A stretch of 59,943 nt of DNA from Cohaesibacter sp. (lineage in GTDB: Bacteria; Pseudomonadota; Alphaproteobacteria; Rhizobiales; Cohaesibacteraceae). The stretch lies in NCBI GenBank assembly GCA_025800105.1, contig JAOXSG010000905.1:1-59943 (forward strand), given 5' to 3'. Positions 38,306 to 50,777 of this stretch are shown piece by piece. Positions within the stretch are counted from its first letter, which is position 1, and each line of letters begins with the position of its first letter. The position numbers and the translations under genes were made by a program. Below the pieces are notes generated by a model. The model was given only the letters and a program-made list of their open reading frames with translations. It did not search any database and had not been told where the DNA came from.

Positions 38306-38427
38306 AATTTCGCACATTTGCAACTTTTGTACAGGCATGCACCTTCATCCACTGATTGGATAAAATCCCGCCTGCGTTGCTTGCCACCGCTCCCACAATC
38401 TGGCACACTTTAGTTGCACACGTGTAA

Positions 38428-38597
38428 GTCCACGGTGTGAGGCTTAAGAACCTCTCAATAGCTCGGTCCTATGGCCGGGTGACAGTCGCTATGTCCAAGG
38501 CCTGCGGCCCAAAAGTGCTGTGCCTTTTGCTATTGAAGGTTCTTAACATTCCGGCCACCAGGGTGGAACGCCTCAAATGATATATTGAAGAGGCGTT
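38428..38597 (+). ncRNA. Large structured RNA leader, candidate translational switch
   Basis: An 18-bp helix (38444-38462 with 38529-38546, one bulge) encloses four possible hairpins: CGGTC/GGCCG at 38464-38477, GACA/TGTC at 38481-38495, GGCC/GGCC at 38499-38509 and AAAAG/CTTTT at 38511-38528. Outside it TGAGGC (38438-38443) pairs with GCCTCA (38570-38575). The same GCCTC can instead join AACGCCTC (38567-38574) to GAGGCGTT (38590-38597), which buries the ribosome site of the next ORF. The two foldings exclude each other, the layout of a riboswitch. I could not match it to a known class. Confidence 0.6.
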
Positions 38598-38599
38598 TC

Positions 38600-38797
38600 A
38601 TGAAGGATTTTGATAAAACACATACTATTTTATCTATGCAATATGCTCTTTTAATCAACGAAGCCTTGTTTGCAGGCGATACAGACCAGATTTTCTCACT
38701 CCTTGCCGAGTTGCTGGAGGTAAGAGGCGAGAAAATGAGCCAAGAGCAATTTGCCAACTATTGTCAGCGCGGTCTTTTCCCGACAGCTAACAATTAA
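38600..38797 (+). CDS. Small protein of unknown function behind the structured leader
   Basis: A 65-residue acidic-to-neutral protein, mostly helical by appearance (SMQYALLINEALFAGD, IFSLLAELLEVRGEK), with one Cys near the C-terminus (NYCQRGLFP). No signal peptide or membrane segment. ATG 38600 has GAAGAGG at good spacing, and that site can be sequestered by the preceding leader. The ORF sits between the D-lactate gene and the orphan CRISPR array. I do not recognise the family. Confidence 0.6.
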   Translation: MKDFDKTHTILSMQYALLINEALFAGDTDQIFSLLAELLEVRGEKMSQEQFANYCQRGLFPTANN

Positions 38798-38904
38798 AAC
38801 ATCATCCCCGCGCATCAGATTTGACTGACCAGCAAATCCGACACAACGCGCATAAAGCTTCAAGCCTCTATGGCATAGAATGTCATAAAGACGGCTTGTG
38901 ACCA

Positions 38905-38995
38905 GAATGAGCGGTGTTACCTTGCTCACCACACCAGTAACCCGCTCGGGGCCGGTGTCTGCTCTCGGGGACAGAGCAAGGCACCGGCCTTTATT
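38905..38995 (+). ncRNA. Two-hairpin RNA ending in a terminator-like stem
   Basis: Hairpin 1 pairs 38909-38920 with 38937-38947 (GAGCGG...CCGCTC, one bulge). Hairpin 2 pairs GGCCGGTG (38950-38957) with CACCGGCC (38982-38989), extended by GCTCT/AGAGC, and is followed by TTTATT. The loop of hairpin 1 (CTTGCTC, 38921-38927) is complementary to GAGCAAG (38974-38980) inside hairpin 2, so an alternative fold or pseudoknot is possible. It may be the end of the 65-residue gene's transcript or a separate small RNA. Confidence 0.45.
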
Positions 38996-39153: not shown

Positions 39154-39255
39154 ATTGTAACAGTTCAGAAATCGTAGTCCAGCCGCAACTCATTGACGAA
39201 TAGATCAATTTGGCCTTGTATTGTAACAGTTCAGAAATCATAGTCCAGCCGCAAC
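39154..39255 (-). CRISPR. Orphan one-spacer array (array 1), type II-C repeat
   Basis: Two 36-bp repeats (39154-39189 and 39220-39255) flank one 30-bp spacer (39190-39219). The crRNA strand is the minus strand, where the repeat begins GTTGCGGCTGGACTACG and ends TGTTACAAT. The leader-distal repeat has one G-to-A change. The nearest cas gene is 6.8 kb away. From 39256 to 39451 I see nothing else. Confidence 0.9.
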
Positions 39256-39451: not shown

Positions 39452-40354
39452 ATGTCACAGAACGCCGCCAATTCTTTTTTGAAAATGACCGAGCATTTGC
39501 AAGGGCAATTGTCGATTTACACGGCAAGGGGTGACATTGCCCAGCCGGTGCGCATTCGCGAGCCGATCGAAGATGGCCTGAAATTGGTCATTTCCAACAT
39601 TGAGATGGACTTGCAGGCGGGCAATCTGCAAACTTTTGAATTTCGCAAGCCTGTTATTTTCGCAGTTCTGGCCGATGGCGAACATGAGCGGGACCAGACC
39701 TTTCATAGCGGGCGCGAGCGCTGGGACATTGCCCTGACCATGGATCGCCAACTGGTGCAGGATGAATTTGGCAAAGACCCGCAAGACTTGTTGCAGGCCT
39801 CGGACAATGCACGCCTGTCGCTCAAAGCCGCCCCTGCCGATCAGGCCATGCGCGCCATTGCCCATCAATTGCTGACATTGCCAGAGGGGCCGGGCAGCAA
39901 TATGGCCCGTATGGGCAATGGCCTCAATCTGGCCGCTATGGTGCTCAAAACACTCTCCAGCGAAAAAGAGCAAAGCAATTTGCCACTCAAGCTCTCAGAC
40001 ATGGAACGCATCGCCCATGTGCGCGAATTGATGCTGGCCGATTTGGCCAATGTACAAGATGTCCGCACTCTGGCCAGACAGGTCGGCACCAACACCGCCA
40101 AACTCAACCGCGATTTTGTCACGGTCACTGGCATGACACCCCATGCATGGCTGCAAGAGCAGCGCCTGCTCAAAGGCTGGCATTTGCTATCCGTGCGCTC
40201 TGTCTCGGTCAGCGAAGCCGCCCATGCCGCAGGCTATACCCCAGCCCATTTCTCCACTCTGTTTCGCAAACGCTTCAAAGTGCCCCCCAGCAGCATCGCC
40301 AATGGCAACGAATGCCCCGCAGCAAGGCTGGATGAAAAAAACGAAAACAATTGA
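39452..40354 (+). CDS. AraC family regulator, siderophore-uptake type
   Basis: A 300-residue protein resembling PchR-type regulators that activate siderophore uptake when the ferric siderophore is present. The N-terminal 190 residues are the ligand-binding part; the C-terminal about 100 residues contain two helix-turn-helices (RTLARQVGTNTAKLNRDF and SVSEAAHAAGYTPAHFSTLFRKRF in two parts). It is immediately upstream of a TonB-dependent receptor and transporter in the same orientation, the usual layout. The start codon has only a weak ribosome site. Confidence 0.87.
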   Translation: MSQNAANSFLKMTEHLQGQLSIYTARGDIAQPVRIREPIEDGLKLVISNIEMDLQAGNLQTFEFRKPVIFAVLADGEHERDQTFHSGRERWDIALTMDRQLVQDEFGKDPQDLLQASDNARLSLKAAPADQAMRAIAHQLLTLPEGPGSNMARMGNGLNLAAMVLKTLSSEKEQSNLPLKLSDMERIAHVRELMLADLANVQDVRTLARQVGTNTAKLNRDFVTVTGMTPHAWLQEQRLLKGWHLLSVRSVSVSEAAHAAGYTPAHFSTLFRKRFKVPPSSIANGNECPAARLDEKNENN

Positions 40355-40478
40355 TAAAAACGCGAAAGTCTCGGTTGTTGCAGCAAGGCTGACCTATGCC
40401 CATTATGGCCACCAGTCTTTGGCACCCATACAGTCCCCGTCTTCAAAGGGTGCATATGAATCAGCAAGGAATCCGGCC

Positions 40479-42656
40479 ATGTCCCTTCACTCCCATGTCA
40501 TGCTGCTGCCCACAATCAGACATTTGCGCAAAGCCCTTCTCGGCTCAGTTCTGATCAGCATGGCCGCAAGCCCCACCCTGTTTGCCACTCTCTCCCCCGC
40601 TCTGGCACAAGAGGCAGAAAAAACCCTGCAAACCATCGTCATCGGCGGTGAGGATAACAGCCTTGAAACACAGGAAAATGCCAGCCGTGGCCTTGTGCCG
40701 CTGACATCCAGCGCAGCAGGCAAAAGCAACAAGGCGCTCATTCGCACCCCGCAAGCGGTCAATGTCATCACCGCCACTCAGCTGGAAAAACAGGATGCAG
40801 AATCCATCACCGCTGCCATTGGCTACACACCGGGCATTCTGGGCACCATCAGCGACCCGCGCGCAGACTGGATCCGCATTCGCGGCTTTTCCGGTGTGGA
40901 ATATCTCGATGGTCTGAAATTTGCCCGCGGCGCCTATGCATGGCCCAAAATGGACCCCTATATGCTGGACCGTCTGGAAATCCTCAAAGGCCCCGCCGCC
41001 GCTCTTTATGGGCAAATTCCCCCCGGTGGTTTGATGAATTTGGTCAGCAAGCGCCCAACGGGCAAAAATGGCGGCGAGTTGCGCCTGCAATATGGCAGCA
41101 ACAACCGCAAACAAATCATGGCTGACATTCAGGGCACTGTGCCGCAAAATGATAGCATCGCCTATCGCATTGCAGGCGCTTTTCGCAAAGCTGACACCGA
41201 GATTGATTTCACCAATGACGACCATATGGTCGGCTCTGCCGCCATCAGCTACACACCCAGCGATCAAACCAAGCTGACCCTTTTGGCCACTGCCGCCGCC
41301 GATGATGCAGGCAGCGCCCAATTTTTGCCAAGTCAGGGCACAGCCCTGCCAAACCCCAATGGCAAAATCCCCCGCAGCACCTTTCTTGGGGAGCCGGGCT
41401 TTGACGATTTCCGCTCCCAGCAATATAGCCTTGGCTATCTGTTCGATCACAGCTTTGACAATGGCGTAAAAATATCCAGCAAACTGCGCTGGTCCTCGGT
41501 CGATTATGACCTGCAAACCGTGCGCGGCTTTGGCATGATGCCAAATTCCAACACTCTTGTGACGCGCCGCGCCGTTAAAATTGACGATCTGACAGAAGCC
41601 TTTGGCACCGACAACAGCCTGCGCTATGATCTGGATACAGGAGCCATCAATCATAAGCTGCTGGCCGGGATCGATTATCTGCATCAAAAAAGCAATCTCA
41701 GCCTTGCTGTCTCCCCCATGGCCCCGATTGACGCCTATAATCCGGTCTATGGCAATCCGGTTTCACCTTTCTTCTTCACCTTGCTCTCCAACAAGCAAAC
41801 TTTGAAGCAAGCAGGTCTTTACGCGCAAGACCAGATATCCTGGAACAATTGGGAGCTAATGCTCACCGCGCGCAATGACTGGTATGAAACCAAAACCTTC
41901 GACAAGCTGAAAAAGACCCATCAAAAAACATCGGGCAATCATCAAACCTATAGAGCAGGCCTGCTCTATGCCTTTGACAATGGCCTCTCGCCCTATATCA
42001 GCTACGCCACTTCCTTTGAGCCCGTGGTTGGTGTCAACACCCGCACCCGGGAAGCTTTCAAGCCAACCGAAGGCAAGCAAATAGAAGTCGGCGTCAAATA
42101 TGCGCCAAGCTTCATCAATGGCCTTTTCACCCTGACCGCCTTCAATCTGCAACAGGAAAATACAATTGTCTCTGATGGCATTCACCGGGTGCAAATTGGC
42201 GAGAGCGAGGTAAAAGGCATCGAGCTGGAAGGGCAAGTTGATCTGGAAAATGGCCTGACCCTGAAAGCCTCTTACGCCTATCTCGATTCCCAAATCAAAC
42301 AAGGCACCAACAAAGGCAAAAAACTGCCCTATGTCGCCAATCATCAAGCCTCAATCTGGGCAAATTACGCCTTTTCCGGCGCCCTTGACGGACTGGATGT
42401 CAATGCAGGCATCCGCTATACGGGCGAGGTGTTCGGCACCACCTCCAACACCATTGCAACCGGTAAAGATGCCATTGTTGACGCCGGTATGAGCTATGAT
42501 TTTGGAGCCAAAAGCAAGGCACTGGAAGGCGCATCCCTTCAGCTCAATGTCACCAATCTCTTTGACAAGGACTATGTCTCTCTTTGCACTGGCACAACAG
42601 AATGCTATTGGGGGGAAGGTCGCAATATCAGAGGCTCTCTTGTCTATAAGTGGTAA
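40479..42656 (+). CDS. TonB-dependent siderophore receptor
   Basis: A 725-residue outer-membrane receptor. It has a signal peptide (about residues 1-45, ending SPALAQE), a TonB-box region (KTLQTIVI), a plug domain (IRGFSGVEYLDGLKFARG, LEILKGPAAALYGQIPPGGLMN) and a 22-strand barrel ending in an aromatic residue (LVYKW). The RTPQAVNVIT and GQIPPGG motifs place it with the ferrichrome/hydroxamate receptor group (FhuA/FhuE/FpvA-like). ATG 40479 has AAGGAA at 8 bases; the upstream in-frame region overlaps the AraC gene in another frame. Confidence 0.92.
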   Translation: MSLHSHVMLLPTIRHLRKALLGSVLISMAASPTLFATLSPALAQEAEKTLQTIVIGGEDNSLETQENASRGLVPLTSSAAGKSNKALIRTPQAVNVITATQLEKQDAESITAAIGYTPGILGTISDPRADWIRIRGFSGVEYLDGLKFARGAYAWPKMDPYMLDRLEILKGPAAALYGQIPPGGLMNLVSKRPTGKNGGELRLQYGSNNRKQIMADIQGTVPQNDSIAYRIAGAFRKADTEIDFTNDDHMVGSAAISYTPSDQTKLTLLATAAADDAGSAQFLPSQGTALPNPNGKIPRSTFLGEPGFDDFRSQQYSLGYLFDHSFDNGVKISSKLRWSSVDYDLQTVRGFGMMPNSNTLVTRRAVKIDDLTEAFGTDNSLRYDLDTGAINHKLLAGIDYLHQKSNLSLAVSPMAPIDAYNPVYGNPVSPFFFTLLSNKQTLKQAGLYAQDQISWNNWELMLTARNDWYETKTFDKLKKTHQKTSGNHQTYRAGLLYAFDNGLSPYISYATSFEPVVGVNTRTREAFKPTEGKQIEVGVKYAPSFINGLFTLTAFNLQQENTIVSDGIHRVQIGESEVKGIELEGQVDLENGLTLKASYAYLDSQIKQGTNKGKKLPYVANHQASIWANYAFSGALDGLDVNAGIRYTGEVFGTTSNTIATGKDAIVDAGMSYDFGAKSKALEGASLQLNVTNLFDKDYVSLCTGTTECYWGEGRNIRGSLVYKW

Positions 42657-43824
42657 TCTTTCGCGCCGCGCCGCGCTTGGCCTGACAGTGGGGGCAGCCT
42701 TATCCGTTGCTGCCCCTTTCGAAGCCTTGGTCGCCTCAGCCAATCCGCACCCCCCGATGCTCCCACAAGCCCTCACGCGGGACTGCATCAAAAATCAGAG
42801 CCTGCCAAAATTCAAAGGCCATCACCCCAAAGTCATTTTGGGCGATGGTCATTTGCTTTTGGCCCTTGCGCTGATATTGGATGATCCTGTTGCTCATTTG
42901 CATGGCTGGCAGGCCGATCTCATCCGCCACAGCCCCCAGCTTTATGACCTCTGGCGACAAAAAGCGCCCGCCTTGGCCGAAGTACCGCGCATTGGCGATG
43001 CCAGCGCCGCATCTTTTTCGCTGGAAACCACGCTGGCACTGGAGCCAGATCTGGTCATCCTTGGCGGCGGCTATGGTCCCGGCCTTCATGATACCCATAT
43101 CATCACCAAACTGAAACAAGCTGGCATTCCCATTCTGTTTGTCGATTTTTATCACAATCCGTTAGAGCATAGCGCTGACAGCTTGCGCGCTTTGGGCCGC
43201 ATCTTTGGCGCAACAGCCTTTGAGCGTGCCAACCACTTGGCCTCTCTGATCGAACAGCGCATTCAAACCATCAAAACCAGACTGGCAAAAGCCAATCCCC
43301 CACGCCCCAAAGTCTTACTAGAAGGCAATGCAGGCCTGCCCGGCATGGGCTGTTGCTGGCTACCGGGCGGCAAGGGGCTGGGCAGTTTTATCGAACTGGC
43401 CGGGGGCATCAACCCCGGCACGGAGTTGTCCTCTTCAAGAGCTTGGGTCAAAATGGCAAGAGAATTGGTGCTGCAACAACAGCCCGATGTCTATATCTGC
43501 ACGGGTGGCCCTTATTTGCGCGGCAAAAACGGCCTTGCCATTGGTCCGGGCATTGAAGAGGACGAAGCCCGCCGCTCCCTTGGCCTTGCCGCCGCTGCCA
43601 GCCAGACCGTCATCGCATCGCAAATGCAACCAAACAGCATCCATGGCCTTTGGCATCTCTTCCCCACAAGCCCGCTCAATATCATAGCGCTGGAAGCCCT
43701 CTGCACTTGGCTCCATCCTTCGCTTTTTGCCAAAGATCCCGAGCAAATCAGCATGGAAAAACTCAACAAAGACTTTCTCTCACTGCCCATGCCCGGCTGC
43801 TACAGCGTGAGCCTTCAATCATGA
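42640..43824 (+). CDS. Ferric-siderophore ABC transporter periplasmic binding protein (FecB/FhuD-like)
   Basis: A 394-residue class III binding protein. The N-terminus has a twin-arginine-like signal (LSRRAALGLTVGAAL, residues 7-21), suggesting Tat export. The two lobes are joined by a helix as usual; ALEPDLVILGG and WVKMARELVLQQQPDVYIC are typical. No ATG fits: the best start is TTG 42640, with AGAGG 5 bases upstream, which overlaps the receptor gene by 17 bases. An earlier in-frame ATG would place over 60 residues before the signal. It hands ferric siderophore to the permease. Confidence 0.82.
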   Translation: MSISGNLSRRAALGLTVGAALSVAAPFEALVASANPHPPMLPQALTRDCIKNQSLPKFKGHHPKVILGDGHLLLALALILDDPVAHLHGWQADLIRHSPQLYDLWRQKAPALAEVPRIGDASAASFSLETTLALEPDLVILGGGYGPGLHDTHIITKLKQAGIPILFVDFYHNPLEHSADSLRALGRIFGATAFERANHLASLIEQRIQTIKTRLAKANPPRPKVLLEGNAGLPGMGCCWLPGGKGLGSFIELAGGINPGTELSSSRAWVKMARELVLQQQPDVYICTGGPYLRGKNGLAIGPGIEEDEARRSLGLAAAASQTVIASQMQPNSIHGLWHLFPTSPLNIIALEALCTWLHPSLFAKDPEQISMEKLNKDFLSLPMPGCYSVSLQS

Positions 43825-44897
43825 ATGAACCAGTCCCGCAAAAAGGCGGCAGTCAAACAAACCATAGTAAAATTTTACAAGCCCATCACCAGCAACAAAG
43901 ACGCAAGCATATCCTGCTGGCAATATTGAGCTGCCTTGCCATTTGTCTCTTCATCATCGATATTTTCAGCGGCCCGTCCAATCTCTCTATATCCGTGCTT
44001 CTCAATGGCCTGATCAACCCCGACAGCCTGACAGCCATTCAAAAACTGATCATTTTTGACATGCGTCTGCCAGCCGCCTGTCTGGCTGCATTGGTCGGGG
44101 CCTGTCTCTCTGTCGCCGGGGTGGAAATTCAAACCATTTTGGAAAATCCCCTCGCCTCTCCCTTCACCTTGGGTATCTCATCCGCCGCTGCATTTGGTGC
44201 ATCGTTAGCCATCATTGCCGGGCTTGGTGTGCCACTTCTCTCAAGCCAATGGATGATCAGCGCCAATGCCTTTGGCTTTGCCATTCTCTCCATGGCGCTG
44301 TTGCAAGGTTTGGCAAAATTACGCGATGGCAGCAACCAAACCCTCATCCTGTTTGGCATTGCCATGGTCTTTGGTTTCAGCGCTTTATTGTCTATTTTGC
44401 AGCTTTTTGCCTCGGCCCAAGCCATCCAAATGATTGTCTTTTGGACCATGGGCAGTGTCGAGCGGGCAAACTGGTCTCAAGTGGCACTGCTGGGTGGGGT
44501 ATTTTTCCTACTCTTTCCTTTGTCCATCCGCGCAGCCTCTGCCCTCACCGCCCTTCGTTTTGGCACTGAGCGCGCCCATGCTTTGGGCATTGATGTGAGC
44601 CGACTGCGCCTCATAGCCCAAATCCGCATTAGCCTGCTCACTGCCCTTGCTGTAGCACTGAGCGGCACCATCGCCTTTGTCGGACTGGTCGGCCCCCATC
44701 TGGCCCGCTTACTGGTGGGCGAAAATCATAAAATTCTGCTCCCCGCCAGCGCCCTTTCCGGGGCAATCCTTATGAACAGCGCCTCCATTGTCAGCAAACT
44801 CATCTTGCCCGGCGTCACCATTCCGATCGGCATCATCACCGCTCTTGTGGGCGTACCGGTTTTTCTCTCGGTCATTTTGGCAAAAACAAAAAAGTAA
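43821..44897 (+). CDS. Iron-siderophore ABC transporter permease (FecCD family)
   Basis: A 358-residue membrane protein with about ten spans. FecCD signatures are visible: RLPAACLAALVGACLSVAG near residue 75, NPLASPFTLGISSAAAFGAS, and the C-terminal GTIAFVGLVGPHLARLLVG that contacts the ATPase. It starts at ATG 43821 overlapping the binding-protein stop (ATGA). Only one permease gene is present, so it presumably acts as a homodimer. A polar 45-residue N-terminal extension (GGSQTNHSK and QQQRR) precedes the first span. Confidence 0.92.
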   Translation: MNEPVPQKGGSQTNHSKILQAHHQQQRRKHILLAILSCLAICLFIIDIFSGPSNLSISVLLNGLINPDSLTAIQKLIIFDMRLPAACLAALVGACLSVAGVEIQTILENPLASPFTLGISSAAAFGASLAIIAGLGVPLLSSQWMISANAFGFAILSMALLQGLAKLRDGSNQTLILFGIAMVFGFSALLSILQLFASAQAIQMIVFWTMGSVERANWSQVALLGGVFFLLFPLSIRAASALTALRFGTERAHALGIDVSRLRLIAQIRISLLTALAVALSGTIAFVGLVGPHLARLLVGENHKILLPASALSGAILMNSASIVSKLILPGVTIPIGIITALVGVPVFLSVILAKTKK

Positions 44898-44907
44898 GAG
44901 CAACAAT

Positions 44908-45768
44908 ATGAGCCAATCCAGCAACACAAAAGCCGATGAAACCGATATCCCCCTGCTCGATATCAAACATCTCAATGCCGGTTATCAAAGCAAAAGCATC
45001 TTAAAAGATATCACCATATCTGCACTGAAAGCCGGGACAATCACCACACTCATAGGCCCCAATGGCGCTGGCAAATCCACCTTGCTCAAAGCCCTTGCTG
45101 GCTTAATACCAGCAAATGGCAACATCCAGCTGGGTGGCCGCACGCTCACCTCCCTTGGCATCAAAGACCGCGCAAAAATCCTATCCTATTTGCCCCAATC
45201 CCCATTAGCAGAGCTGGATCTAAGCTTGCTTGAAAGCCTGCTCTATTCCGCCCGCATCAAAAATGAGGCAACAGACAATCCCCTCATCATGCCAGAGCTG
45301 GAACAGGCCGCGCTTCAAGTGCTGGAAAAACTGGATTTACAAGATCTGGCCCTTTCCAACCTCTCTGCCCTATCAGGCGGACAAAGACAAATGGCAAGCT
45401 TTGCGCAAGCAGCCCTTGGCACAGAGTTAAGTGGCACCAAAGGCCACCTCTTCATGCTGGACGAACCCACAAGCGCCCTAGATTTGCGGCGACAAGAGCA
45501 ATTGATGCAATCCCTGCAAACTCTGGCAAAAGAGGGCTGCATCATCATGCTGGTGCTGCATGATTTATCCCTCGCCAGCCGCTATTCAGACCGCCTCATA
45601 GTCTTGGACAAAGGCACGCTTGTTGCCGACGGCTCACCAGAGCATGTGCTAACCCCAAAACTCTTGCGCAGCCTCTATGGCGTAGAAACCAAAATCACCC
45701 GCAGCGAAACAGGCAAAGTCAACATGACCATCACAGGCCTTGCAAACGATCAGACCAAGGAAAGCTAG
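44908..45768 (+). CDS. Iron-siderophore ABC transporter ATP-binding protein
   Basis: A 286-residue FecE/FhuC-type ATPase. Walker A is GPNGAGKST, the signature is LSGGQRQMASFAQA and Walker B is LFMLDEPTSALD; the D-loop and switch histidine (VLHDLSLASRY) follow. It starts 10 bases after the permease gene and completes a receptor, binding protein, permease and ATPase set for a ferric siderophore. The last 30 residues are poorly conserved. The tracrRNA region begins about 85 bases beyond its stop. Confidence 0.92.
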   Translation: MSQSSNTKADETDIPLLDIKHLNAGYQSKSILKDITISALKAGTITTLIGPNGAGKSTLLKALAGLIPANGNIQLGGRTLTSLGIKDRAKILSYLPQSPLAELDLSLLESLLYSARIKNEATDNPLIMPELEQAALQVLEKLDLQDLALSNLSALSGGQRQMASFAQAALGTELSGTKGHLFMLDEPTSALDLRRQEQLMQSLQTLAKEGCIIMLVLHDLSLASRYSDRLIVLDKGTLVADGSPEHVLTPKLLRSLYGVETKITRSETGKVNMTITGLANDQTKES

Positions 45769-45851
45769 CATCCCCATGACAGGAATGGCGTGGACCTGAA
45801 ACTGGTTACAAAAGCCCATGTCATGAATCATTCGTGGCCAAAATCAAGACA

Positions 45852-45930
45852 CAAAAAACGGGCCGTAGCCCGTTTTAAAATGTGGTGCAATCGAATGCTT
45901 GTTAACGACTCGACTACGATTTCTGAATAT
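45852..45930 (-). ncRNA. tracrRNA of the type II-C CRISPR system
   Basis: On the minus strand a 16-base stretch (45927-45912, TTCAGAAATCGTAGTC) is identical to the anti-repeat of the CRISPR repeat, so it can base-pair with crRNA; lower-stem pairing continues with mismatches. About 35 bases on comes an intrinsic terminator, AAAACGGGC-TACG-GCCCGTTTT plus a T tract (45876-45853). Upstream on this strand TTGCAT (45963-45958) and TTAAAT (45941-45936), 16 apart, could be the promoter. It is divergent from cas9, whose 5' region it shares. Confidence 0.85.
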
Positions 45931-46016
45931 CCAATATTTAATATATATCACCACCAAATGCAACATTGAATTGTATGAATACAAGTCCTAGTCTCCTATA
46001 AAACAGGAGATCAGTG

Positions 46017-49000
46017 ATGCGCCTTGGACTTGATATTGGAACAAACTCGATTGGCTGGTGGCTTTATAGGCTTGATGACAAGGGGCGCATAACCAGCACC
46101 ATTGATGGGGGTGTGCGGATTTTTCCTGATGGCCGCGACCCCAAATCAAAAGAATCTCTGGCCAAAGACCGCCGCGCAGCCCGTGCCGCCCGCCGCCTGC
46201 GCGACCGCTATTTGCGTCGCCGCAAGAGCCTAATGAAAAAAATGGCCGCCAGCGGCCTGATGCCCAAAGACCCAACCGAACAAAAAAAGCTCGAAACTCT
46301 CGACCCCTTTGCCCTGCGCGCCAAAGGACTGGACGAAAAGCTGGACTTGACGGAACTGGGCCGCGCCTTTTTTCACCTCAATCAGCGCCGTGGCTTCAAA
46401 TCCAACCGCAAAACCGACAGCCGCGATAATGAGGCAGGTGCCATCAAAAGCGCCAGTACCCGCCTTGATACAAAAATAAAACAAGCCAATGCCCGTACAT
46501 TTGGCGAATATTTGCATATGCTGCGCACAGCAGCACCCGACCCGCGTCATCAACCAAGCATACGTTCACGCCTGACCTTACGCCACAATATCGATACCCA
46601 AAAAGACGAACTGGGCTATGACATCTACCCCACCCGTCAGCATTTGCAGGAAGAATTTGATGCATTATGGATGGCACAAGCACGCTTCCACCCACAATTG
46701 ACAGATGCGCTTTACAAAGACATTCATGACACAATCTTTTATCAGCGCCCCTTAAAAGCACCCGAAGTAGGCCGCTGCCTGTTTGAGCCACAAAAAGACC
46801 GCCGCCTTGCCAAGGCCCATCCGCTTTTCCAGCAGCGCATTCTCTATGAAACCGTCAATCAGTTGCAAATCCAAAGCCACGGCCAGCCAAAGCGCGGCCT
46901 GACACTGGACGAGCGCGATGCACTGATCCTGAAATTAAACAGCAAAACGGTCAAAACTCTCTCCAGCGCGACAATCACCTTCAAGCAATTGGCCAAAGCC
47001 ATTGGCCTTGGCACACACGAACACTTCACACTGGAAAGCAACAGCCGCAAAGGCCTTGATTGCGATAAAGTGCGCGCCATTTTCGCCCATAAGGAATGTT
47101 TCGGCCCCCGCTGGACCAGCCTGTCCTGGCAACAACAATGGGAGATTATCGAGAAAAAACAAGCGCTGGAAAGCGAAGAGGATTTCCACCAATTTGCTGG
47201 CTGGCTGTTCGAGACTTATCAAGTGTGTGATGATCAATGCGAGGCCATTGCCAATGCGCCCCTGCCCGAAGGCTATGGCCGCCTTGGCATCACCGCCACG
47301 CAGCATCTCTTGCCAGCCTTGCAAGAAGATGTGATCACCTATAGTCAGGCCTGCATAGATGTTTATGGTCATCATAGCGATTTTCGCACCGGAGAATGCT
47401 TTGACAAACTGCCCTATTATGGCAAAATTCTCGAGCGCCACGTTATTCCCGGCAGCTCTAACCCGGATGATGATGACATCAAACGCTATGGCCGCATCAC
47501 CAATCCCACAGTCCATATCGGGCTGAACCAGCTGCGGCGCTTGCTCAACCGCATCATTGCCCGCTATGGCCTGCCAGAGCAAATTGTGCTGGAGCTGGCC
47601 CGCGATTTAAAGCTATCCAAAGACCAAAAGAAAAAGGTCAGCCAAACCATTGCCAAAAACACAAAACAGGCAATCGAGCGCGGCAAAAAGCTGGAAGAAA
47701 TGGGCCAGCGCAACACTGGCGCCAATCGATTGTTGCTGCGCCTTTGGGAAGATTTGAGCCATGACGTACTGCATCGCCGCTGCCCTTATAGCGGGGTACA
47801 AATCAGCGAAACCATGCTGTTTGACGGCTCTTGCGATATTGACCATATCTTGCCCTATTCGCGCACATTGGATGATTCACGCGCCAACAAAACCCTGTGC
47901 CTGCGCAGCTTTAACCAAGAGAAAAACAACAATTCCCCGTGGGAGCGCTGGGGCAACAGCTCACAATGGGACAAAATTTCTCCGCTCATTCCCCATATGC
48001 CACAAAATAAGCGCTGGCGCTTTGCCCCTGATGCCATGGAGCGCTTTGAAGAGGAAAAAGACTTTTTGGACCGGCAATTGGTGGATACCCAATATCTCTC
48101 GCGCATTGCGACCGAATATCTCAAATGCCTCTATCCCGAAAAAGGCGAAGGCAGCAATCATGTCTGGGTTATTCCGGGCCGCATGACAGAGATGCTCCGC
48201 CGCCATTGGGGGCTGAATTTTAACCTCTCCATCGGCGAATCTGGCACTGCCAATATCAAAAACAGAAGCGACCACCGCCACCATGCCATTGATGCAGCTG
48301 TCATCGCCGCCACCGACCGCCGCTTGGTCAAAGCCATTCAGCAAGCCTCCGCCAATCGCGAACGGCAAAAACTGGATCAGGTAATCGGCGATATTGACGA
48401 GCCCTATGCAGGCTTTCGCGCTTGCATTCACAAGCGGCTGGACAGTATGCTTGTCAGCCACCGCCCCGACCATGGCAAAACAGGCAGCACCAACCTGCCA
48501 AAAGGGCAAAGCAGCACCTCTGGCCAGTTGCATAATGACACAGCCTATGGCCTGACAGATGAGACCAGCCCCAATGGGGTGCCCATTGTCGTGACCCGTA
48601 AACCCTTCATGCAGCTGACCCACAAGGATTTGGACAAAATCCGCGATCCCCATTTATATGATCTATTGTGGGACGCCCTGCGCGATGTCTCTGACAAGGA
48701 AGTACCCCAAGAGCTGGAGCGCTTTCGCCAAAAGGAAGGCCCCTATCAGGGCATTCGCCATGTCAGGATAGCACAGGCTCTCAAGGTCATCCCCATCACC
48801 AATGATCAGGGCACAGCCTATAAAGGCTATAAGGGCGACAGCAACCATTGCTATGAGATCTGGCAATTGCCCGATGGCAAATGGCAGCGCGTGGTCTATA
48901 CCACCTTTGAAGCCAACAAAGGCGGCATCGACAAAAAGCCACACCCCGCCGCCAAACGCCTGATGCGCCTGCACAAAAAAGACACGCTTATGCTGGATCA

Positions 49001-49223
49001 TCCCAAAACAGGCAACAAAGTGATGGTGATTGCAAAATTAAGCGAGCAAACTTTAGCTCTTGTTGCTCATAACGAGGCCAATGTCGATGCCAGAAACCGC
49101 TCCAAAGACGACCCTCTATCTTATGTCTATGTTTCAGCATCCAGCCTTCAATCAGCTAACGCACGTCAGGTCTGGATCAATGAAATAGGGGAGTTAAGAT
49201 TGAAACAAAAAAATGCACTTTAA
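46017..49223 (+). CDS. cas9: CRISPR-associated endonuclease Cas9 (type II-C)
   Basis: A 1068-residue RNA-guided DNA nuclease of the compact II-C size. All catalytic centres are intact: RuvC-I Asp6 (GLDIGTNSIGW), an arginine-rich bridge helix (about 46-75), RuvC-II Glu526 (LELARDL), HNH His610 in CDIDHILPYS with the later FNQEKNN, and RuvC-III His756/Asp759 in HHAIDAAVIAAT. ATG 46017 has AGGAGA at 7 bases; the GTG one codon earlier is less likely. cas1 and cas2 follow, and there is no csn2 or cas4, which fits II-C. The C-terminal PAM-interacting domain cannot be read for its PAM by eye. Confidence 0.97.
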   Translation: MRLGLDIGTNSIGWWLYRLDDKGRITSTIDGGVRIFPDGRDPKSKESLAKDRRAARAARRLRDRYLRRRKSLMKKMAASGLMPKDPTEQKKLETLDPFALRAKGLDEKLDLTELGRAFFHLNQRRGFKSNRKTDSRDNEAGAIKSASTRLDTKIKQANARTFGEYLHMLRTAAPDPRHQPSIRSRLTLRHNIDTQKDELGYDIYPTRQHLQEEFDALWMAQARFHPQLTDALYKDIHDTIFYQRPLKAPEVGRCLFEPQKDRRLAKAHPLFQQRILYETVNQLQIQSHGQPKRGLTLDERDALILKLNSKTVKTLSSATITFKQLAKAIGLGTHEHFTLESNSRKGLDCDKVRAIFAHKECFGPRWTSLSWQQQWEIIEKKQALESEEDFHQFAGWLFETYQVCDDQCEAIANAPLPEGYGRLGITATQHLLPALQEDVITYSQACIDVYGHHSDFRTGECFDKLPYYGKILERHVIPGSSNPDDDDIKRYGRITNPTVHIGLNQLRRLLNRIIARYGLPEQIVLELARDLKLSKDQKKKVSQTIAKNTKQAIERGKKLEEMGQRNTGANRLLLRLWEDLSHDVLHRRCPYSGVQISETMLFDGSCDIDHILPYSRTLDDSRANKTLCLRSFNQEKNNNSPWERWGNSSQWDKISPLIPHMPQNKRWRFAPDAMERFEEEKDFLDRQLVDTQYLSRIATEYLKCLYPEKGEGSNHVWVIPGRMTEMLRRHWGLNFNLSIGESGTANIKNRSDHRHHAIDAAVIAATDRRLVKAIQQASANRERQKLDQVIGDIDEPYAGFRACIHKRLDSMLVSHRPDHGKTGSTNLPKGQSSTSGQLHNDTAYGLTDETSPNGVPIVVTRKPFMQLTHKDLDKIRDPHLYDLLWDALRDVSDKEVPQELERFRQKEGPYQGIRHVRIAQALKVIPITNDQGTAYKGYKGDSNHCYEIWQLPDGKWQRVVYTTFEANKGGIDKKPHPAAKRLMRLHKKDTLMLDHPKTGNKVMVIAKLSEQTLALVAHNEANVDARNRSKDDPLSYVYVSASSLQSANARQVWINEIGELRLKQKNAL

Positions 49224-49278
49224 ACGTGTATTTTCTGCTAGTCTGTTGGCCAATCACTTTTAAAAAGCAGATTGGCCA

Positions 49279-50193
49279 ATGGATCAAATCATCGAAATTG
49301 CAAGTGACAATCGCCACCTGAAAAAAGATCACGGCTTTCTCGTGGTTCAGGAAAATAAATGCGAATTGGGCCGTGTGCCGCTAGATTCCATTTTAGCCGT
49401 CATCGTCCATGCCCATGGCATCACCTATTCCAACAATTTGCTTGTGGCTTTGGCAAAGTAAGGCTCACTTTTGGTGCTGTGCGGCTCTAACCATTCGCCC
49501 TATGCTGTTCTCTGCCCGTTGGAAAATCACGGCCTGCAAGGGGCCAGAAGCCGCGCCCAGTGGGAGGCCACAAAACCCCTGATCAAGCGCCTATGGAAAC
49601 GGATTGTAATCGAGAAGATCCGCACACAGGCCGATTGCCTCAAAGCCTTTGCCTTACCCGACAGTCCAGTGCGTGAGCTAACCAAACAGGTAAAAGTGGG
49701 TGATGAGGGCAATATAGAAGCAAGAGCCGCGCGGCGCTATTGGCCCCTGTTAATGGGCAAAGACTTTCGCAGAACAGTCAGCGCTGATGGCCACAATGCC
49801 CAGCTCAATTATGGCTATACCATCCTGCGTTCCATGATGATGCGCTCCATTGTGGCAACAGGTCTCACTCCTACCATCGGGCTTTTTCATAGCAACCGGG
49901 CCAATGCCTTTGCCCTGGCAGATGATTTGATGGAGCCCTTCCGCCCCCTTGTTGATAGCATTGTCATGCAATGCCAACAAAATGCGCAAGAAGAGCTGAC
50001 ACCAGAGCTGAAAAGCAAATTTTCGCGGCTAACGAGGTTGGATGTTCAAATTGGCGATATTGTCTGCCCGCTTTCCCATGCATCCAACAAAGTAGCCCTT
50101 AGCCTTGTCAAAAGCTTTGAAGAGAAGAAAGACCAAATTCTTTATCCCCGTTTCCCAAGCCCCATAGAGCTGGCTTCCTTAAATGAGGGATAA
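49279..50193 (+). pseudogene. cas1: cas1 interrupted by an in-frame stop codon
   Basis: The frame reads as one full-length Cas1 (304 codons including the break) except for TAA at 49459-49461, codon 61. The reading frame is the same on both sides, so this is a single nonsense change, not a frameshift. Upstream: MDQIIEIASDN to LLVALAK. Downstream: LCGSNHSPYAVL to the normal C-terminus, with the metal-site Glu (GNIEARAARRYW) and His/Asp (GLFHSNRANAFALADDLMEPF) preserved. The break lies in the N-terminal beta domain. A TTG at 49471 could restart a 240-residue fragment. Spacer acquisition is therefore probably lost, unless this is a sequence error. Confidence 0.88.
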
Positions 50194-50198
50194 AGCAA

Positions 50199-50537
50199 AT
50201 GAGCGCAACCTTTTTAAGTGGATATCGTGTTTTGTGGATACTTGTAATGTTTGATTTGCCAACCGACACAAAAAAACAACGCAAAGCAGCAACCCGTTTC
50301 AGAGAGTTTTTATTGAATGAAGGATTTGAACGCAGCCAATTTTCAGTTTATGCTCGTTTTGTCAGTGGAAAAGAAGGCTTTGATGCCCGTGTTCGCAAAA
50401 TAGAGCGCAATTTACCCACTGAAGGCGATGTGCAAATCCTGCAATTCACCGATAAACAATATGAAAATATGATTCGTTTTTATGACCAAGGCCGCCAAAA
50501 AAACCGAAAAAAACACGATCAACTGGTCCTTTTTTGA
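50199..50537 (+). CDS. cas2: CRISPR-associated endoribonuclease-like Cas2
   Basis: A 112-residue Cas2 of the type II kind, which normally bridges two Cas1 dimers in spacer integration. It has the ferredoxin-like opening with the conserved Asp (LVMFDLPTDTKKQRKAATRFREFL, in two parts), then GFERSQFSVYARFVSG and the C-terminal strand EGDVQILQFTDKQYE. It starts 5 bases after the cas1 end and looks intact. Since cas1 carries a stop, this gene may be a relic or be maintained by chance. Confidence 0.92.
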   Translation: MSATFLSGYRVLWILVMFDLPTDTKKQRKAATRFREFLLNEGFERSQFSVYARFVSGKEGFDARVRKIERNLPTEGDVQILQFTDKQYENMIRFYDQGRQKNRKKHDQLVLF

Positions 50538-50609: not shown

Positions 50610-50777
50610 ATTGTAACATTTCAGAAATCGTAGTCCAGCCGCAACGAAAGGCCGCTATTCACCCTTGACCAGCCAATTGTAACAGTTCAGAAATCGTAGT
50701 CCAACCGCAACCATCTGATCAATGTTTTTCAGGAATGACTTATTGTAACAGTTCAGAAATCACAGTCCACTCACATA
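50610..50777 (-). CRISPR. Two-spacer CRISPR array (array 2), type II-C repeat
   Basis: Three 36-bp repeats (50610-50645, 50676-50711, 50742-50777) with two 30-bp spacers. The repeats carry one, one and many substitutions; the third, farthest from the leader, is degenerate in its last third. crRNA is read on the minus strand (repeat begins GTTGCGGCTGG, ends TGTTACAAT). The TACAAT end with TG two bases before resembles an extended -10, as in Neisseria II-C repeats. The remaining bases to 50857 hold the promoter region of the ligase gene. Confidence 0.95.

What the first reader, a model, noticed from the sequence alone, without database searches (positions are those of the whole stretch)
38428..38797. 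Unassigned structured RNA that can hide the ribosome site of a 65-residue ORF
An 18-bp helix closes four hairpins, and an outer helix TGAGGC/GCCTCA brackets the whole. The same GCCTC can alternatively extend to an 8-bp hairpin with GAGGCGTT, which contains the ribosome binding site of the ORF at 38600. Two mutually exclusive folds of this kind are how translational riboswitches work; outer-helix formation would free the site (an ON switch). It matches no class I know, and the ORF product is also unknown.
Basis: partly seen in the sequence, partly recalled or inferred. Interest (0 to 1): 0.75.

Follow-up and report, generated by a model that had tools for sequence, protein, structure and literature searches.

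The report
C4-type antisense RNA leader
A bacterial RNA that looked like a metabolite switch turns out to be built like the "C4" antisense RNA of phage P1, which silences a gene that would end the phage's dormancy, and it belongs to a family of relatives that the public RNA library does not recognise at its curated scores.

Summary
The RNA at 38438-38600 is real: its 18-bp helix keeps pairing through five adjacent double changes in the one close relative found (a Cohaesibacter MAG). Covariance-model searches show a divergent C4-type antisense RNA, like C4 of phages P1/P7 and sRNA-Xcc1, rather than a riboswitch. The core (38473-38556) folds into P1, P2 and P3. I aligned 71 members (51 non-redundant) with strong covariation; none of the loci scanned reached a gathering score for C4 or sRNA-Xcc1. 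Antirepressor-type domains follow the RNA in 13 of 28 members outside the window's set, but in 0 of 16 within it. The SD-hiding hairpin is real and recurs. The outer helix is about 7 kcal/mol weaker than the SD-hidden fold, so an equilibrium ON switch is not supported. Downstream C4-type targets (a2/b2) are detectable in the other members but not in the window's set, so how the RNA acts on the ORF is inferred. The 65-residue ORF is under purifying selection; its function is unknown. New variant of a known kind.

The parts
38416..38439 (+). 5' hairpin of the leader, in the position of the first hairpin of the c4-a1b1 motif
   Evidence: MFE folds; c4-a1b1 (RF03163) sub-threshold hit at the equivalent place in relative L066
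38438..38462 (+). upstream arm = a1/b1-type sites: possible GAGG-CUUAAGAA-CCUC hairpin, then CAAUAG; complementary to linker and P3 loop of the core
   Evidence: own-versus-swapped arm test in 51 members p = 5e-5, and in the 33 members not found with the arm-containing model
38464..38477 (+). capture hairpin CGGUC-CUAU-GGCCG that can hold the 5' strand of P1 in the precursor fold
   Evidence: own-versus-swapped in 27 hand-picked members p = 1.5e-4
38473..38556 (+). C4-type core: P1 38473-38479/38550-38556, P2 within 38482-38521, P3 within 38522-38540, linker, P1 3' strand
   Evidence: MFE of 62 of 71 cores is P1 plus two branches, against 40 of 1020 shuffled cores; covariation
38527..38535 (+). 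P3 loop UUGCUAUUG (b'-type); 5 nt of it exchanged in concert with the arm in the relative
38539..38546 (+). linker GUUCUUAA (a'-type), complementary to the arm
   Evidence: order in phage P1
38567..38574 (+). anti-SD flank AACGCCUC; GCCUCA (38570-38575) can instead pair with 38438-38443
38590..38602 (+). Shine-Dalgarno GAGG (38590-38593) and AUG (38600) in the SD hairpin
   Evidence: sequence; SD unpaired probability at most 0.02
38600..38797 (+). 65-residue ORF without family match; predicted small three-helix protein
   Evidence: dS 0.170, dN 0.026, 6 synonymous and 4 non-synonymous changes, Fisher p 0.006; no Pfam, PADLOC, PHROGs or NCBIfam match; AF2 mean pLDDT 79 from a 2-row alignment, no PDB match at E <= 0.001
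38798..38995 (+). conserved structured 3' end of the unit, ending in a strong G+C hairpin with a short T tail (possible terminator; inference)
   Evidence: fold z = -4.66; conservation; the consensus scan did not flag it

Best explanation
A C4-type antisense-RNA leader. One transcript (inferred) carries an a1/b1-like arm, the C4-like RNA, an anti-SD segment and the 65-residue ORF. Shown by comparison: the core folds as C4 (P1, P2, P3); its P3 loop and linker match the upstream arm; the 5' strand of P1 can instead be captured by a hairpin; the flank matches the SD. Inferred: the nascent leader folds with the arm paired to the core. Processing (in P1, RNase P at the 5' end of the P1 stem), or binding of C4-like RNA from other transcripts to the arm, lets the core fold on its own and leaves the flank free to hide the SD. 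The ORF is thus off while the element's own RNA is plentiful, and can be translated only briefly or when that RNA is scarce. The P3 loop and linker set the specificity and change in concert with the arm.
For: Sub-threshold Rfam hits of relatives at the same place and strand: sRNA-Xcc1 in 5 of 15 loci (best 40.7 bits, gathering 53) and 6 of 20 further loci; C4 in L065 (27.4 bits, gathering 45) and c4-a1b1 in L066. MFE of the core is P1 plus two branches in 62 of 71 members, the window included, against 40 of 1020 shuffled cores. Covariation in 71 members: 95.4% of cells paired, 439 double-change cells, covariation score reached by 0 of 500 shuffles; the bare number of pairs with double changes (18 of 20) is reached by 5 of 500. 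Arm complementarity own versus swapped p = 5e-5. Flank-SD p = 5e-5. Capture hairpin p = 1.5e-4. The P1 record has the order a1-b1-C4-a2-b2-small ORF (icd), with a' in the linker and b' in the P3-like loop. Antirepressor-type domains in 13 of 44 downstream proteins scanned, 11 of them above Pfam's cut-off. Two paralogs in the window's own genome differ in arm, linker and loop together (read by eye).
Against: The window's RNA matches no Rfam family even at E 10, and model R2 does not find the C4 that lies in the first 50 kb of phage P1, so common descent with P1 C4 is not proved. In the window's set (18 non-redundant members found with R1) downstream complementarity to the P3 loop and linker is no better than with swapped partners (6.89 against 6.91, p = 0.54), whereas it is in the other 33 (p = 5e-5); for the window itself 22 of the 50 other downstream regions score better than its own. 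None of the 16 downstream proteins of the window's set carries an antirepressor-type domain. The canonical P1 way of silencing the ORF is therefore not evident here. No trans target that follows the specificity change was found in the two genomes (G000 is 65% complete). SD hairpin and arm helix can coexist (-76.2), so the link between arm and SD rests on the weaker outer helix. The relative's core (L052) does not fold as P1 plus two branches in its MFE. No consensus promoter was found. No expression data.
Confidence: 0.6

Rival explanations
1. The C4-like RNA is a trans-acting sRNA (like sRNA-Xcc1) whose target lies elsewhere, for instance in an incoming relative of the element; the SD hairpin and the ORF are a separate, ordinary translational control.
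For: No a2/b2 sites detectable downstream in the window's set (p = 0.54). Some members of that set have a hairpin with a T run after the core (seen by eye for L057, L064, L066, L067; a simple script flagged 6 of 51 members), so those RNAs may end before the gene. The specificity change without a matching change at the ORF's SD fits a target outside the locus.
Against: Flank-SD complementarity is specific within the window's set (15 members p = 0.0025; 14 without the window p = 0.022). The window has no T run directly after the core, so RNA and ORF are probably co-transcribed. No trans target was found in the two genomes.
Confidence: 0.25
2. Metabolite-binding translational riboswitch.
For: Leader with alternative folds and a hidden SD.
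Against: C4-type architecture; a loop inside the supposed aptamer changes freely as long as the arm follows; downstream genes include antirepressors, HTH proteins and unrelated genes rather than one pathway.
Confidence: 0.03
3. RNA-controlled toxin-antitoxin-like module: the C4-like RNA is the antitoxin and the 65-residue protein the toxin, as sRNA-Xcc1 lies upstream of symE.
For: sRNA-Xcc1 is reported upstream of symE in Xanthomonas integron cassettes (PMC12444791, passages). The ORF stands in the place of P1 icd, annotated as inhibitor of cell division.
Against: The ORF matches no family; no antisense site on it is evident.
Confidence: 0.1
4. Part of the CRISPR-Cas9 system next to it (tracrRNA or accessory RNA).
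For: The unit ends about 160 bases from a CRISPR array at 39154-39255.
Against: A repeat-like stretch beside cas9 (45906-45927), followed on the minus strand by a hairpin and T run, is the likely tracrRNA; the scan found no repeat-like stretch in the RNA; relatives of the RNA occur in many genomes and viral contigs.
Confidence: 0.02

Closest known systems
C4 antisense RNA of phages P1/P7 (Rfam RF01695, with c4-a1b1 RF03163)
   Same: P1/P2/P3 core; a'-type linker and b'-type P3 loop; upstream a1/b1 arm; order arm, C4, small ORF
   Different: Core sequence too far for Rfam or for model R2 to bridge; longer P2 with a conserved AUGUCCA loop; no detectable a2/b2 at the window's ORF; an anti-SD flank hides the SD; only 11 bases between arm and core. 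P1 and P7 are reported to differ in a' (PMC5320573, passages); the window and its relative differ in the b'-type loop
sRNA-Xcc1 (Rfam RF02221), reported upstream of symE in Xanthomonas integron cassettes
   Same: Best Rfam match of the relatives (up to 40.7 bits); same order of P1, P2, P3
   Different: Below the gathering score (53) in each relative listed; reported with symE, not with this ORF
C4-like Group 1 sRNAs of Acinetobacter baumannii (PMC5320573, passages)
   Same: C4-like RNAs of a bacterial genome, several copies, reported as apparently processed from longer transcripts and varying in the a' region
   Different: Different bacteria; sequences were not compared here

Membership tests
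C4 antisense RNA (RF01695) | reaches the curated Rfam score | tested here: not met
   window: no hit up to E 10; best relative L065 27.4 bits against 45
C4 antisense RNA (RF01695) | P1/P2/P3 fold of the core | tested here: met
C4 antisense RNA (RF01695) | upstream a1/b1 sites complementary to linker and P3 loop | tested here: met
C4 antisense RNA (RF01695) | a2/b2 sites at the ribosome site of the downstream gene | tested here: not met
   22 of 50 foreign downstream regions beat the window's own; window's set p = 0.54, other 33 members p = 5e-5
C4 antisense RNA (RF01695) | downstream gene is an antirepressor operon | tested here: inconclusive
   window ORF unknown; antirepressor-type domains in 13 of 28 other members but 0 of 16 of the window's set
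C4 antisense RNA (RF01695) | processing at the 5' end of P1, at a GG | not testable with these tools
   the core starts GGC; processing needs RNA data
sRNA-Xcc1 (RF02221) | reaches the curated Rfam score | tested here: not met
   best relative 40.7 bits against 53; window none
sRNA-Xcc1 (RF02221) | located upstream of symE | tested here: not met
   window ORF matches no Pfam or NCBIfam model
Translational riboswitch | SD alternately hidden and exposed by exclusive helices | tested here: inconclusive
   both pairings exist; exposed fold about 7 kcal/mol above the free fold
Translational riboswitch | conserved ligand-binding core and a consistent class of regulated genes | tested here: not met
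   the P3 loop changes together with the arm; downstream genes diverse; ligand binding itself not testable here

The most novel reading that the evidence does not exclude
A large branch of C4-type RNAs, not reached by Rfam's curated scores and spread through Alphaproteobacteria and other Pseudomonadota, in which one set has dropped the separate mRNA targets: the RNA recognises only its own leader, and control passes through competing pairings (arm-core, P1 capture, flank-SD). Specificity is exchanged as a cassette (arm plus loop), both between sister strains and between paralogs in one genome, and the module stands in front of genes that look like ordinary ones (HTH regulators, a GGDEF protein, a beta-barrel protein) as a self-recognising switch.
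Probability: 0.35. Interest if true: 0.75.

Novelty: new variant of a known kind. Interest (0 to 1): 0.6.

Why it matters
C4 is the model phage immunity RNA, and the curated library captures only part of its kind. If this family holds, RNA-based silencing of antirepressors and other genes is common well beyond P1-like phages: model R2 matches 39 of 200 genomes sampled across the phylum, the window's own included. It gives natural pairs of specificity variants for testing how such RNAs tell self from non-self, and a set in which the switch seems to work without the classical downstream targets.

Tried and rejected
Riboswitch or other Rfam class: no Rfam hit to the window's RNA. tracrRNA or CRISPR RNA: rejected. 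A copy of the unit in phage or plasmid records by DNA: no match. ORF in IMG/VR: none; in genome contigs: only the known relative. ORF in 397 genomes of the order: besides G000 and G008 two weak hits (G022, G303; E 0.002 and 0.0045) in open frames of 101 and 216 codons were looked at and dropped as unconvincing. The third hit of the first DNA search (G047) is a 29-base match without the structure, dropped. Integron attC site: considered because of the sRNA-Xcc1 name; by my reading the helix ends do not fit the attC core motifs (recalled; no tool test). RNAduplex own-versus-swapped (upstream p 5e-5, own best in 13 of 51; downstream p 0.031, own best in 1 of 51) was judged too dependent on composition and was replaced by an ungapped Watson-Crick score (own best in 10 and 6 of 51). 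Constrained folds of the SD hairpin with wrong or unenforced pairs were repeated correctly. Trans target by pattern: besides the locus itself only G000:C130 with G008:C30 (the same site in both strains, so it does not follow the specificity change) and G000:C466. ORF model against PDB: no match at E <= 0.001. Literature: listings (12 of 27 shown) and 101 named no such alphaproteobacterial family; the held library lacks most subscription journals, and the 2011 sRNA-Xcc1 paper is not held.

Limits: no tree was made, so 'the window's set' means the members found with model R1 (20, of which 18 non-redundant; 3 are viral contigs), not a proven clade. R1 contains the arm helix, so its finds are biased towards having an arm; the 33 others are not. 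Six R1 matches with E 0.009-0.07 were kept because they fold alike and entered R2. Members are related, so permutation p values are not strict probabilities. Of 51 non-redundant members, 7 had no clear ORF start and 3 too short a flank, leaving 41 for the flank-SD test; 37 were usable for the flank-arm test, in which the script misplaced the arm in at least L059, L063, L120 and L217. The 27 members were picked by hand. ORF starts were chosen by a simple script. The first ten proteins scanned were picked because they looked like antirepressors; all other chosen ORFs were scanned afterwards, except L052, which is 94% identical to the window's.

Full report
Observation. Of the 19 other genomes held for the family, one has the same unit, at 95% identity: G008, whose contig the named collection lists as Cohaesibacter sp. 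MAG R2S4C2D_S42.004 (genus in Alphaproteobacteria). Between the two, five adjacent pairs of the 18-bp helix change on both sides and the other 13 are unchanged. The ORF shows 6 synonymous and 4 non-synonymous changes (dS 0.170, dN 0.026; Fisher p 0.006), so it is probably translated. The conserved stretch runs from about 38400 to 38995.

Finding the family. A covariance model of 38436-38577 (R1) matched 4 of 397 genomes of the order at E <= 0.1, two of them G000 and G008, and 9 of 385 of the class, G000 included. The matches, six of them weak (E 0.009-0.07), share one architecture. Three of 80 viral-contig loci, pre-selected by a motif, also matched R1. A model of the core alone, built from 19 of these members (R2), matched 39 of 200 genomes of the phylum at E <= 0.01, G000 included, and 22 places in 20 of the 80 viral loci at E < 1e-6. 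In all, 71 members were aligned; 51 are non-redundant with at least 150 bases upstream: 18 found with R1 ('the window's set') and 33 others.

Identity. Relatives give sub-threshold Rfam matches at the same place and strand: sRNA-Xcc1 in 5 of 15 loci and 6 of 20 others, C4 in L065, and c4-a1b1 in L066 just upstream of its sRNA-Xcc1 match. In 16 viral loci nothing reached a gathering score for C4 or sRNA-Xcc1. The MFE fold of the core is P1 enclosing two branches in 62 of 71 members (19 of the first 20, the exception being L052), against 40 of 1020 shuffled cores. Across 71 members 18 of the 20 modelled pairs have double changes (reached by 5 of 500 shuffles), 95.4% of cells pair and the covariation score is reached by none of 500. 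In phage P1 the record lists a1, b1, C4, a2, b2 and then the small ORF icd. Folding P1 C4 places the b' sequence in the P3-like loop, and a' lies in the linker, the same order as here. R2 itself does not detect P1 C4, so the kinship is architectural and through sRNA-Xcc1-like sequences, not proved by sequence.

What pairs with what. (i) Arm with P3 loop and linker: own arm 9.41 against 7.44 for swapped arms (p 5e-5); the same for the 33 members found without the arm in the model (9.20 against 7.40). (ii) P3 loop and linker with the 130 bases downstream: own better than swapped over all 51 (7.54 against 6.94, p 2.5e-4), but this comes from the 33 others (7.89 against 6.95, p 5e-5); in the window's set of 18 there is no signal (6.89 against 6.91, p 0.54). 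L200, L210 and L216 are clear examples of the first kind: copies of both arm halves recur before and at the SD. (iii) Flank directly 3' of the core with the SD: 41 members, 5.67 against 4.83, p 5e-5, the window scoring highest (10.0); window's set 15 members p 0.0025, without the window 14 members p 0.022, others 26 members p 6.5e-4. (iv) The flank with the 5' end of the arm: 37 members, 4.64 against 4.20, p 0.0098. (v) The 5' strand of P1 with the bases just upstream of it: 27 hand-picked members, p 1.5e-4.

Energetics. For 38405-38615 the free fold is -76.9 kcal/mol and hides the SD; arm plus SD hairpin is -76.2; arm plus outer helix with the SD free is -69.8; the C4 fold plus SD hairpin is -66.2. 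The SD is unpaired with probability at most 0.02. At equilibrium the ORF is therefore off. The outer helix could matter only in the short time before the SD is made, or with help in trans; this is inference.

Genes behind the RNA. Forty-four downstream proteins were scanned, the window's ORF included. Thirteen match antirepressor-type domains: Rha in L138, L199 and (below cut-off) L101; Bro-N in L200, L217 and (below cut-off, at a contig end) L216; AntA in L204, L207; P22_AR_N in L116, L094; ORF6N in L073, L083, L072. Four carry HTH domains (L054, L057, L066, L067); one each matches RovC_DNA-bd, GGDEF and OMP_b-brl; L058 and L215 have only below-cut-off matches; 22 have none at the thresholds used. 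All thirteen antirepressor-type proteins are among the 28 members outside the window's set; none is among the 16 within it. That P1 C4 silences an antirepressor is from PMC12197685 (passages).

Specificity. A 4-nt deviation in the a' region is reported to be enough to stop cross-reaction between P1 and P7 C4 (PMC5320573, passages). The window and G008 differ by 5 nt in the P3 loop, the b'-type position, with the arm changed to match. In the window's own genome two further copies (C1026 and C434) lie in similar surroundings but differ from each other in arm, linker and loop, each matching within itself (read by eye). In neither strain does the leader of the window's ORF show a second site near the SD that follows the change, and pattern searches of the two genomes found no other site that follows it.

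Conclusion. The element works like a C4 antisense leader by its anatomy and is best described as a new variant of that kind; it is not a member of RF01695 or RF02221 by their curated scores. The mechanism proposed (the RNA acts on its own leader and leaves the SD hidden) is an inference at moderate confidence. The main results against it are the missing a2/b2 sites and missing antirepressors in the window's set, which equally allow a trans-acting sRNA beside an independently hidden ORF.

Noticed in passing
window 39154-39255, 45840-45930, 46014-50537, 50610-50777: CRISPR-Cas9 system with cas9, cas1 and cas2 (type II-C by gene content, my reading), two arrays with a 36-base repeat, and a likely tracrRNA on the minus strand (anti-repeat 45906-45927). 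Array 1 holds 2 repeats in the window and 12 in G008.
   Followed up: partly
window 39452-45768: AraC-type regulator (Pfam) followed by receptor- and ABC-transporter-like genes (iron uptake by appearance, not searched) between array 1 and cas9; in G008 only short remnants of this stretch align.
   Followed up: no
L205:359-425, L194:2889-2953, L144:6418-6494: Type II hammerhead ribozymes (above Rfam gathering) within about 0.3-1.3 kb of C4-like RNAs, same strand, in three loci.
   Followed up: no
L218 and L219 (G000:C1026 and C434): Two more C4-like RNAs in the window's genome with different specificity halves, each followed by a hairpin with a T run and then a protein with a differing N-terminal and a nearly identical C-terminal part.
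   Followed up: partly
L200, L216 upstream of the core; L220:48276-48315 (phage P1): A hairpin-like stretch followed by a T run lies between the a1/b1 arm and the C4-like core, as if the supply of C4 were itself attenuated (by eye); the window has only 11 bases there.
   Followed up: no
L087:144-821 (-): Three C4-like RNAs in tandem, 297 bases apart, in one viral contig.
   Followed up: no
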